Shown piece by piece: positions 32,719 to 35,768 of a stretch of 64,000 nucleotides of DNA. The translations under genes and the position numbers were made by a program. Origin of the DNA: Candidatus Methylomirabilota bacterium. Its GTDB lineage: Bacteria > Methylomirabilota > Methylomirabilia > Methylomirabilales > Methylomirabilaceae. Within the stretch, counting starts at the first letter, position 1, and each line of letters begins with the position of its first letter. Location: assembly GCA_003104975.1 (NCBI GenBank), contig PQAM01000012.1:1-64000 (forward strand). Reading direction: 5' to 3'. Below the pieces are notes generated by a model, which was given only the letters and a program-made list of their open reading frames with translations, was not told where the DNA came from and made no database searches.

Positions 32719-32753
32719 TCTGTCATCCCATCGTCTCCGCATCCTTCCAACCG

Positions 32754-34853
32754 CTACCTGATCTTGATCCGCAGCTCCTCCTGATCATGTGAGCCGCCAC
32801 TCGAGGTCACCATGACCTGAAAATCGAAGGTGCCGACCGTCGTGGGCGTCCCGACGATCTGCCCCGTGGCCGAATCAAGGTTCAGACCGGGTGGAAGCGT
32901 ACCGCCGATGAGGCTGAAGGTCAGCGGCGGTATCCCTCTTTTGGCCTTCAGCGTGGCAGGGTACGGGATCCCCACCCGACCACGCTTCAGCGTATCAGTC
33001 GTAAGCTTCACCGGCTTGACGATCTTCAGGGACACCCGCTGCGTAGATGCGGCCCCTGCGTTATCCGTGACCTCGACGGTAAACTTGGCCGACTTGGCCT
33101 TTGTCGGGATCCCGCTGATCGTACCCGCCGCGTCGAGGACCAGTCCCGGTTGAAGCTTCCCCTTGATCAGTCGCCACAGATAGGGGGGTGTACCGCCTTC
33201 AGCCGACAGTCCTGTCAGGTAACTTACACCCCGCTCTCCAACAGGCAGACCGGCGGTTGTAATTCCAAGCGGCGGCGGGCCCGCGATGCCGTATATTCTG
33301 AGGCTCCAACTGTTCCAGGTCCCGACATCCTCGGGAGCCAGATCAGCAACCCGAAGCGTCCAGGTACCGGCCGCCGATTCCCCCCAATGACGCACCGATC
33401 CGAAGCGCCAGAAGCTGAAATTCTCACCGGCGTCCAAGGCTCGAACCGTGGCCAGCCTGCTGATGACGCCCGCAGGAGAGGTCAAGGTGGCCTCCAAATC
33501 ACCGCGATACGGATGCGTGGCATCAAATATCACTTCGACATGTTCGACGGTGAAGTTGATAAATGCATTGTCAATGGAAATACTATCCACCAGACCCGCC
33601 GTGTCGTCGTCCGGGATGGCGCGGCCGATTGAACGTGTGACGGCGGGTACGGCGCTCTCGGCTGGAACAGGGCTCCAGGTGGCGGCCAGATTGACCGCCG
33701 CCTGTCCGTCCGCCAATCCAAATCCGAACCGCTCGTTGTGGGCGAAGGATCCGGTTGTCCACCCGGAATCCGCCGGGTTGATCCGCACCGCAGAATGCGC
33801 CAGGATGTGTTGGACGTCGCGCCAGGTCAACGAGGGATTCTCGGCCAGCATGAGCGCCGCAATACCGCCGACCAATGGGGTAGCCGCGGATGTTCCCCCG
33901 AAACCGCTCGTGTAGTCGCCCGGCGCATCACCCGGCGCACCTACGAGGTCGGTTGTCGTGATCCCCCGCGTGCCTCCGTTAGAGGGGGCCGTGACGAACA
34001 TGGCTGCGCAGGGTTCACTGTAGGGCGCCTGTTGCGCGTTATCGGCCAGCGCACCCACCGCCATTACGAACCGGTTATTTGCGAATCCATTGAAATTGCA
34101 GTTATCATCTCTTGTGAGACCATTGCCGGCGGCCCAGAGAAAGACCCTCCCTTTGCCGCTCCGCCCCTGCATGATCGCCGTCTCAATCGCCGTCTGCGCG
34201 AGAGCACCGGGACCTGACAGGGTACTCCCGTTATCGGGCGGACCCCAGGAGTTGCTGAGGATGTGAATGGCGTCCCGTTGATGGGCGAGCGCCGCAGCGA
34301 TCTGAGCGTCCGACACCGGGCTGCCGATCAGGCGCAATCCGGCCAGGGATGCGAGCGGCGCCGCGCCGCTGCCCCCGATGCCGTTATCCCCCCTGGCGGC
34401 GGCGACCCCCGCCACAGCGGTTCCGTGAAAATCTCCCGCGTTAATATCCGGACTCGGATCGGCGTCATTGCCGTTAAAATCCCATGAGAGATCGCTCATA
34501 TAGTTGGGGGCCAGGTCGGGATGGGTGTGCTGTAACCCGTCATCGACGATGCCGACTACAATTCCCGCGCCTTTGGTAGTCGGCCAGACCGCCCGAACGT
34601 TGGTCCCGGCCGGCTCTTCGCCACGCGCCTTGAGATGCCACTGCTGATCGAGTAATGGATCGGTCGAGGCGCTGTCGGTCCGGATCACCGGGAGTGTTTG
34701 ATCGGGTTCCACGGCAGCGACGGCTGTTGCGTGCGCGACCGCGCCACCAACGAGCCACATCAGACCGGCGGTCAACACGGCGCGCCAGAACCATCCTGCG
34801 CGCCACATCGCTGACCATGCTTTGAAAGTGGTCGACTGAGTCGGTATCGGCAC
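32754..34853 (-). CDS. Secreted subtilisin-like (kexin-type S8) protease with P domain and Ig-like repeats, lacking a prodomain
   Basis: 699 residues from a GTG at 34853 behind GGAGGG. Signal peptide (AVLTAGLMWLVGGAVAHA), about 20 residues of linker, then DPLLDQQWHL, which in relatives follows the prodomain. Catalytic Asp104 (GIVDDGLQHTHPDL), His143 (FHGTAVAGV), Asn244 (AAGNG) and Ser322 (GGTSAATPLVGG) are all present. A proprotein-convertase P domain spans about 415-530, followed by two putative Ig domains (GITTAGLPVGERGVSYLTG and LTTDTLKRGRVGIPYPATL). No prodomain precedes the catalytic domain; the gene 55 bp upstream encodes a prodomain-like protein. Confidence 0.9.
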   Translation of the reverse strand: MPIPTQSTTFKAWSAMWRAGWFWRAVLTAGLMWLVGGAVAHATAVAAVEPDQTLPVIRTDSASTDPLLDQQWHLKARGEEPAGTNVRAVWPTTKGAGIVVGIVDDGLQHTHPDLAPNYMSDLSWDFNGNDADPSPDINAGDFHGTAVAGVAAARGDNGIGGSGAAPLASLAGLRLIGSPVSDAQIAAALAHQRDAIHILSNSWGPPDNGSTLSGPGALAQTAIETAIMQGRSGKGRVFLWAAGNGLTRDDNCNFNGFANNRFVMAVGALADNAQQAPYSEPCAAMFVTAPSNGGTRGITTTDLVGAPGDAPGDYTSGFGGTSAATPLVGGIAALMLAENPSLTWRDVQHILAHSAVRINPADSGWTTGSFAHNERFGFGLADGQAAVNLAATWSPVPAESAVPAVTRSIGRAIPDDDTAGLVDSISIDNAFINFTVEHVEVIFDATHPYRGDLEATLTSPAGVISRLATVRALDAGENFSFWRFGSVRHWGESAAGTWTLRVADLAPEDVGTWNSWSLRIYGIAGPPPLGITTAGLPVGERGVSYLTGLSAEGGTPPYLWRLIKGKLQPGLVLDAAGTISGIPTKAKSAKFTVEVTDNAGAASTQRVSLKIVKPVKLTTDTLKRGRVGIPYPATLKAKRGIPPLTFSLIGGTLPPGLNLDSATGQIVGTPTTVGTFDFQVMVTSSGGSHDQEELRIKIR

Positions 34854-34908
34854 CGCTACCCTCCGCTAATGTCCCGAGAGGTCCGTGACGCCTGCAACCT
34901 GACCCGGA

Positions 34909-35550
34909 TCAGCGCGCGACGTAGGCGCGTTTTAAGAGCGGATAGGCGCTGCGCACTCCCGGGCGCTCGCGCAGCGCCTCAGCGAGCGTGAGGGTCGCAA
35001 TCGGATCGCTCGCATCGACAACGTAGCCCCCGGGAACGCCGGGAATCGATCGGACAGATCTGACCGCCAATCCTGCGACCAGATCCTGCACATCTATCCC
35101 CTCCTCCACCAACAGACCAACCTCTCGAGTCAGCAGGCGGCGGGTGCTCTTACTGTGCGGGAGTCCGGATTCAAAGAGGACCGGGTAGATGTCAACACCG
35201 GGGTTGACGGCCTTCAAAGCTGCGGTCATCGCCGACAGATCCGCAAGGGTGGTAATCTCTGACAGGGCAACGACAGCTCTGGAGGCCTCGCTGTCCACCA
35301 CGCGCGCGCCGTAGACCATGACCGGCGTATCGACGGCGGGAACGCCGCCTTTGTCCGACATCGGCCACTGAAGCTCGATCGTATCGAGGACCACTTCATA
35401 CTGTTCTCGATGCGGCGCATAAAGCGTGATCAGCGGCCCCGCAACAGGCTGCTTCGGCTCCTTGGCGCCGCTTTCATCGACCGAAAATATCAGCAGGCCC
35501 GCCAGACACAGGTTGGTTACCCATCTCATGCGTTGCGCGTTCCGCCCCAT
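34909..35550 (-). CDS. Separately encoded prodomain-like exported protein of the adjacent S8 protease
   Basis: 213 residues with GGAGGGGG in front and a signal peptide (TNLCLAGLLIFSVDESGA). The middle and end (VNPGVDIYPVLFESGLPHS, STRRLLTREVGLLVEEGID, DPIATLTLAEALRERPGVRSA, YPLLKR) look like the N-terminal prodomain of kexin-type subtilases, where the same pattern continues directly into ..NDPLF..QWHL. Here the protein ends at that boundary, and the next gene, same strand, begins its mature part at DPLLDQQWHL. I infer a prodomain that acts in trans as folding helper and/or inhibitor. It could instead be a stand-alone inhibitor. Confidence 0.7.
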   Translation of the reverse strand: MGRNAQRMRWVTNLCLAGLLIFSVDESGAKEPKQPVAGPLITLYAPHREQYEVVLDTIELQWPMSDKGGVPAVDTPVMVYGARVVDSEASRAVVALSEITTLADLSAMTAALKAVNPGVDIYPVLFESGLPHSKSTRRLLTREVGLLVEEGIDVQDLVAGLAVRSVRSIPGVPGGYVVDASDPIATLTLAEALRERPGVRSAYPLLKRAYVAR

Positions 35551-35683
35551 TGCCCCCTCCGCTTTCTCGACCTTTTCTTGTAGTGTAGCACGCCACGGCT
35601 GAAGTCCGGAGACCTTTCCGTACTACCCGCTGACGAGCGTCACCGGGTTGCCTTTCCAGCAGAGACGGTCGCCCGCTTTGCGC

Positions 35684-35712
35684 TTGACACCCCTGATCCC
35701 GCGGTGTTAAGG
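35684..35712 (+). promoter_or_regulatory. Predicted promoter of the rib operon
   Basis: TTGACA (35684-35689), 17-nt spacer, TTAAGG (35707-35712), 57 nt before ribD. The leader is too short for, and shows no trace of, an FMN riboswitch. Confidence 0.5.
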
Positions 35713-35768
35713 TAACTTCATGTATTTCCTCAGAAAGTCCGCTTTCTCGTTACCTGCTATGAGGTGGA

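What the first reader, a model, noticed from the sequence alone, without database searches (positions are those of the whole stretch)
32754..35550. Kexin-type subtilase whose prodomain is a separate, independently exported protein
Seen: the 699-aa protease has a signal peptide, about 20 linker residues, then DPLLDQQWHL and a full Asp-His-Ser catalytic domain with P domain; no prodomain. The 213-aa gene directly upstream on the same strand has its own signal peptide and ends at RPGVRSAYPLLKRAYVAR, the sequence that in single-chain relatives leads into ..NDPLF..QWHL. Both genes have strong ribosome sites, so this is not a simple frameshift. Known: subtilase prodomains are intramolecular chaperones and inhibitors. 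Inference: the prodomain acts in trans, giving a two-protein secreted protease whose activity depends on the ratio of the two.
Basis: partly seen in the sequence, partly recalled or inferred. Interest (0 to 1): 0.75.

Follow-up and report, generated by a model that had tools for sequence, protein, structure and literature searches.

The report
Secreted protease with separately encoded propeptide
A bacterium makes a furin/kexin-like secreted protease whose "folding helper" segment, normally the front part of the same protein, has become a separate exported protein encoded next door; this is a second natural case of a known rarity, and close relatives of the still-joined form are available for comparison.

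Summary
The 699-aa protease (32754-34853, -) has a signal peptide, a 22-aa linker and then a kexin-like S8 + P domain, with no room for a prodomain. The 213-aa gene upstream (34909-35550, -) encodes an exported protein whose C-terminal 73 residues are the missing S8 prodomain and whose N-terminal ~90 residues are the extra propeptide domain found in some single-chain relatives. A profile of three small proteins alone finds the complete propeptide of single-chain relatives in another phylum (E 4e-12 to 1e-7). A profile of fused prodomains alone ranks exactly these three small proteins first among 787 ORFs. The split form also occurs in two Rokubacteria; there stop and start overlap (ATGA) and the protease begins DPL. 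directly after its signal peptide. Split proteases form one clade (99/100) among single-chain proteases, so this is one old gene fission, not a recent frame break. The pair sits as a unit between ftsY and ribD, which are adjacent in six sister species. Most likely mechanism: the small protein is an external foldase and product-like inhibitor. A precedent exists: the Aeromonas sobria protease ASP with chaperone ORF2. Contact and trans function were not shown here; control by ratio is unsupported.

The parts
34909..35550 (-). 213-aa exported propeptide protein (external chaperone/inhibitor candidate), ATG start, SD GGAGGGGG
   Evidence: 44-49% identical homologs in the same position in G088 and G093
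35464..35550 (-). signal peptide of the small protein (about residues 1-29)
   Evidence: read from the sequence (RMRWVTNLCLAGLLIFSVDESGA); also present in both homologs
35161..35436 (-). N-terminal propeptide domain (about residues 39-130), ferredoxin-like in the AF2 model
   Evidence: pLDDT about 80-93 over most of it; also present in fused relatives L032, L138-L141 and in a non-protease protein of G049
34912..35130 (-). S8-type prodomain (residues 141-213), beta-alpha-beta-beta-alpha-beta, ending in the invariant C-terminal Arg
   Evidence: pLDDT about 95-97; fused-only profile finds it; hhalign 94.6-95.0%, E 7e-8 to 4e-8
34854..34908 (-). 55-nt intergenic gap with SD GGAGGG for the protease; no terminator-like site found
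32754..34853 (-). 699-aa propeptide-deficient kexin-like S8 protease, GTG start
34728..34853 (-). signal peptide of the protease (residues 1-42; an alternative start is M16)
   Evidence: read from the sequence (MWRAGWFWRAVLTAGLMWLVGGAVAHA)
34662..34727 (-). 22-residue linker before DPLLDQQWHL; absent in the three relatives
33717..34571 (-). Peptidase_S8 catalytic domain, D104/H143/N244/S322
33294..33548 (-). P (proprotein convertase) domain
32772..33278 (-). two He_PIG Ig-like repeats (C-terminal tail, not conserved in the relatives)

Best explanation
The pair is a secreted, kexin-like subtilase whose ancestral propeptide was cut off by gene fission at the autoprocessing linker and given its own signal peptide. 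Shown: homology of the small protein to the whole propeptide, conserved linkage, one origin. Inferred: both chains cross the inner membrane separately; the propeptide protein folds alone, templates folding of the catalytic domain in trans and caps the active site, with its invariant C-terminal Arg lying in the S1 pocket like the P1 residue of an already cleaved propeptide; the enzyme is freed when the propeptide dissociates or is degraded. No autocleavage is needed, because the two chains are made already 'cut'.
For: Fold and homology: a profile of the three small proteins alone matches the full propeptide of single-chain S8+P proteases (L032 E 8.9e-8; G137 3.9e-12, G133 1.9e-11, G140 7.7e-8, G134 1.0e-7; these run on into NDPLF..QWHL). 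Reciprocal: a profile of fused prodomains only ranks the three small proteins as the top hits of 787 ORFs, matching to or near the last residue. The AF2 model (pLDDT 88.9, pTM 0.82) gives beta-alpha-beta-beta-alpha-beta in the last 75 residues. Linkage: same order in G088 and G093 with an ATGA overlap; the frame offset of the window pair differs from theirs. All other named S8+P relatives checked are single-chain, with L071 and L074 unclear. Split forms are one clade, 99/100. The cassette lies between ftsY and ribD, which are 101-254 nt apart in six sister species, so both genes are present or absent together. All three small proteins end in Arg at the position before the F/L-x-PNDP linker. 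Precedents for trans action: CspB prodomain co-expressed in trans restores folding (PMC3567191); ORF2 inhibits ASP and its C-terminal Lys lies at the catalytic centre (PMC5638518).
Against: No complex was modelled and no experiment exists. In the AF2 model of fused L032, the Foldseek alignment to pro-subtilisin E (3whi) spans both domains but with rmsd 23, so the docking was not reproduced. G041, a member of the split clade, has the protease (contig starts 236 nt upstream) but no detectable small-protein gene in a 92%-complete genome. The Foldseek search of the small protein finds ferredoxin-like folds in general, not S8 prodomains in particular.
Confidence: 0.8

Rival explanations
1. The small protein is now only a stand-alone inhibitor (like I9 inhibitors such as yeast Pbi2), and the protease folds without it.
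For: G041 has a split-clade protease with no detectable small-protein gene; L074 is a planctomycete S8+P protease with an intact triad and no room for a prodomain.
Against: Tight coupling and co-inheritance of the pair. In studied subtilases, deletion of the prodomain strongly reduces folding (CspB). The G041 contig is cut just upstream of the gene.
Confidence: 0.13
2. The split is a recent frame break, sequencing error or pseudogene of a single-chain enzyme.
For: Both halves lie in order on one strand and in different frames.
Against: Two signal peptides and two ribosome sites; the same organisation in three genera with 44-52% identity and a coding-type pattern of change (codon position 2 > 1 > 3); frame offset differs between the window and the relatives; single-origin clade.
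Confidence: 0.01
3. The small protein has a changed role, for instance targeting or retention of the protease through its N-terminal domain; the prodomain part is vestigial.
For: The N-terminal domain with a shortened prodomain is fused to a beta-propeller protein without protease in G049.
Against: The prodomain part is the best conserved and best predicted part, and its C-terminal end is invariant (AYPLLKR..R).
Confidence: 0.05

Closest known systems
Aeromonas sobria serine protease ASP and external chaperone ORF2 (also Vibrio, Shewanella, Chromobacterium, Pseudoalteromonas)
   Same: Kexin-like S8 protease without propeptide; separately encoded chaperone in the same operon; C-terminal basic residue of the chaperone (Lys in ORF2, Arg here) expected at the active site (PMC5638518).
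   Different: ORF2 lies downstream, here the gene is upstream. No sequence match of the small protein to any PDB chain at E<=10 except chance ankyrin hits, ORF2 presumably among those searched. The protease is far closer to Kex2 (1.8e-88) than to ASP (3.6e-25). Here homology to a cis propeptide is clear.
Single-chain S8+P proteases of bacteria and Marine Group II archaea (e.g. L032, L056, L139, L140)
   Same: Same catalytic and P domains, same prodomain; in L032/L138-L141 also the same N-terminal propeptide domain.
   Different: One polypeptide, one signal peptide, NDPLF..QWHL preceded directly by the prodomain.
Kexin/furin (MEROPS S8B)
   Same: Catalytic and P domain architecture.
   Different: Prodomain in cis and autocleaved at KR (established knowledge).
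Prodomain-like stand-alone proteins: I9 inhibitors, Plasmodium SUB1-ProM (PMC6993865)
   Same: A prodomain-like protein acting separately on a subtilase.
   Different: Those proteases keep their own cis prodomain; here it is missing.

Membership tests
Peptidase family S8 (kexin-like, S8B) | Asp-His-Ser triad in a subtilase domain followed by a P domain | tested here: met
Peptidase family S8 (kexin-like, S8B) | N-terminal prodomain in cis | tested here: not met
   22 aa between signal peptide and DPLL; 0 aa in G088, G093, G041
S8 prodomain (I9-like fold) | Sequence homology to prodomains of S8 proteases | tested here: met
   (no Pfam or NCBIfam model hits it)
S8 prodomain (I9-like fold) | beta-alpha-beta-beta-alpha-beta fold | tested here: met
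   Foldseek not specific
Subtilase with external chaperone (ASP/ORF2 type, as a working principle) | Propeptide-deficient protease plus separately exported propeptide-like protein in one gene pair | tested here: met
ASP/ORF2 family (as a lineage) | Chaperone homologous to ORF2 and encoded downstream of the protease | tested here: not met
   gene upstream; no sequence match to a PDB protease chaperone; protease closer to Kex2
Subtilase with external chaperone (ASP/ORF2 type, as a working principle) | Chaperone required for folding and inhibiting the mature enzyme | not testable with these tools
   needs expression experiments
Subtilase with external chaperone (ASP/ORF2 type, as a working principle) | Direct contact of chaperone and catalytic domain | tested here: inconclusive
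   only a fused homolog could be modelled; docking not reproduced

The most novel reading that the evidence does not exclude
A second, independent origin of external-chaperone subtilases, by fission of an ordinary single-chain zymogen exactly at its autoprocessing linker. The enzyme needs no autocleavage, because the propeptide is made with the product-like C-terminal Arg already exposed. Activity is then set only by when the separate propeptide is destroyed or dissociates.
Probability: 0.6. Interest if true: 0.62.

Novelty: new variant of a known kind. Interest (0 to 1): 0.5.

Why it matters
Propeptides of subtilases are the textbook intramolecular chaperones. A 2022 survey of the family names Aeromonas ASP as the exception (PMC9549277). 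Its chaperone ORF2 shares no detectable sequence with cis propeptides (recalled from the abstract of Kobayashi 2015, not held here), so its origin is obscure. Here the origin is visible: the same two propeptide domains occur in cis in single-chain relatives and in trans in one clade. Natural fused and split versions can be compared directly to ask whether cis linkage and autocleavage are needed for folding, and how a cis chaperone becomes a separate one.

Tried and rejected
(1) The search for related loci with the single protease in genome contigs found nothing; the four-protease alignment worked. (2) Pfam, NCBIfam and PDB sequence searches of the small protein: nothing. (3) Aligning small proteins with two long fused chains by MAFFT put them on the catalytic domain; same fault; prodomain-only fragments or fewer fused rows cured it. 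(5) Its model did not settle the docking: alignments to pro-subtilisin (3whi), ProN-Tk-SP (3afg) and fervidolysin (1r6v) extend over the prodomain but with rmsd above 20. (6) Foldseek of the small protein: best hits are tandem RRM-like proteins, E 3e-3, which says only 'two ferredoxin-like domains'. (7) Pseudogene or recent frameshift: rejected. (8) The E-value of the 5-sequence profile on L032 and G049 is circular and is not used.

Full report
WHAT IS THERE. On the minus strand lie two genes: a 213-aa protein (34909-35550) and, 55 nt downstream, a 699-aa protease (32754-34853). Both have good ribosome sites and signal peptides; no terminator-like site was found between them. The protease has signal peptide, 22-aa linker, Peptidase_S8 (95-379), P domain (436-520) and Ig-like repeats. 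Its best solved relative is yeast Kex2 (1.8e-88), then furin; Aeromonas ASP is far behind (3.6e-25). The triad is intact. The small protein matches no family model and no PDB sequence beyond chance.

RELATIVES. The phylum holds 95 searchable genomes. A genuine small-protein partner was found in three: the window's own, G088 and G093; G049 carries the domain in another protein. The close protease was found in these three and in G041. Through the named records these are Candidatus Rokubacteria (MGBV01000158, JACQWC010000256, JACPDG010000030). The window's genus looks like Methylomirabilis (NC10) from this kinship and the gene context; that name is my inference. In G088 and G093 the small gene directly precedes the protease and the two overlap as ATGA, and the mature protease begins DPLL/DPLV right behind the signal peptide. 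In G041 the protease also begins so, but the contig starts 236 nt upstream, and no small-protein gene was found in that 92%-complete genome.

FUSED FORMS. A scan of named genomes with the protease alignment gave 63 loci. Apart from the split clade, those with readable N-termini carry a prodomain in cis, running into NDPxF..QWHL: Chloroflexota, Desulfobacteraceae, a Deltaproteobacterium, Planctomycetota, Cyanobacteria, Marine Group II archaea. L074 and L071 are unclear; L074 has no room for a prodomain.

IS THE SMALL PROTEIN THE PROPEPTIDE? Three tests agree. First, a profile of the three small proteins alone, with no fused protein in it, hits the propeptide of the fused protein L032 (E 8.9e-8, profile positions 55-221 of 221) and, in that organism's phylum, four further genomes over nearly the full length (3.9e-12, 1.9e-11, 7.7e-8, 1.0e-7); all four read on into NDP/NDT-LF..QWHL. 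Second, a profile of fused prodomains alone puts exactly the three small proteins first among 787 ORFs (E 2.7e-5, 1.1e-4, 1.8e-4), matching their last 50-70 residues up to or near the end; hhalign gives 94.6-95.0% over 73 columns. Third, AF2 of the mature small protein (pLDDT 88.9, pTM 0.82) shows two alpha/beta domains, the second beta-alpha-beta-beta-alpha-beta at pLDDT about 95-97. The Foldseek search is not specific: it reports ferredoxin-like folds in general.

ORIGIN. A tree of catalytic plus P domains puts the split proteases in one clade (99/100), with single-chain forms on all sides; those sharing the N-terminal propeptide domain branch outside it. One fission is the simplest reading. 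The break lies in the linker after the prodomain: fused ..QQQPR-FIPN-DPLF.., split ..QQFPR-stop and then (signal peptide)-DPLL... In six sister Methylomirabilis genomes ftsY and ribD are only 101-254 nt apart, and none of the 14 other genomes of the genus has either gene; in the window the 2.8-kb pair lies between them. The pair therefore comes or goes as a unit. Base composition does not mark it as recent.

HOW IT PROBABLY WORKS. From established subtilase biology: the prodomain packs on the catalytic domain, speeds folding, and after cleavage its C-terminus stays in the active site as an inhibitor. CspB shows that a bacterial prodomain can do this when expressed in trans, and that its C-terminal residues gate the active site (PMC3567191). 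ORF2 of Aeromonas does it naturally for ASP (PMC5638518). All three small proteins here end in Arg, the residue expected in the S1 pocket of a kexin-type enzyme, so the chain is made as if already cleaved. Folding in trans, inhibition and contact are inferred, not shown. The one structural test available, a model of fused L032, left the docking open.

NOVELTY. The principle is known from ASP/ORF2, which a 2022 survey lists as the exception among subtilases (PMC9549277). By lineage this is not a member of that family: gene order, chaperone sequence and protease affinity all differ. It is a second, apparently independent case, and unlike ASP/ORF2 its origin from a cis propeptide is plain. Hence: new variant of a known kind.

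Noticed in passing
L086 (G049:C57:72000-86000), frame from 4075: A 2496-aa open frame without protease begins with the same N-terminal domain and a shortened prodomain (middle part missing), followed by a beta-propeller and repeats: the propeptide domains have been reused in another secreted protein.
   Followed up: partly
L074:3971-5770 (+), Botrimarina hoheduenensis: A 599-aa S8+P protease with intact triad, signal peptide and PEP-CTERM-like tail has only about 45 aa before NDPLVGSQWHL, so no prodomain; no small-protein homolog adjacent or (E<0.5) in the genome.
   Followed up: partly
L016:237-3128 (G041): Split-clade protease at a contig start; no small-protein gene found in the genome.
   Followed up: partly
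window 32719-35768: The two-gene cassette lies between ftsY and ribD; six sister genomes have only 101-254 nt there.
   Followed up: yes
L023 versus L024, 2500-6500: Contigs binned as Elusimicrobia GWA2_69_24 and Rokubacteria GWC2_70_16 are identical here: probably mis-binning, otherwise very recent transfer.
   Followed up: partly
window 32772-33278; L014; L015; L016: The C-terminal tails of the split proteases are unrelated to each other (Ig-like pair, various repeats), while catalytic and P domains are 56-72% identical.
   Followed up: no
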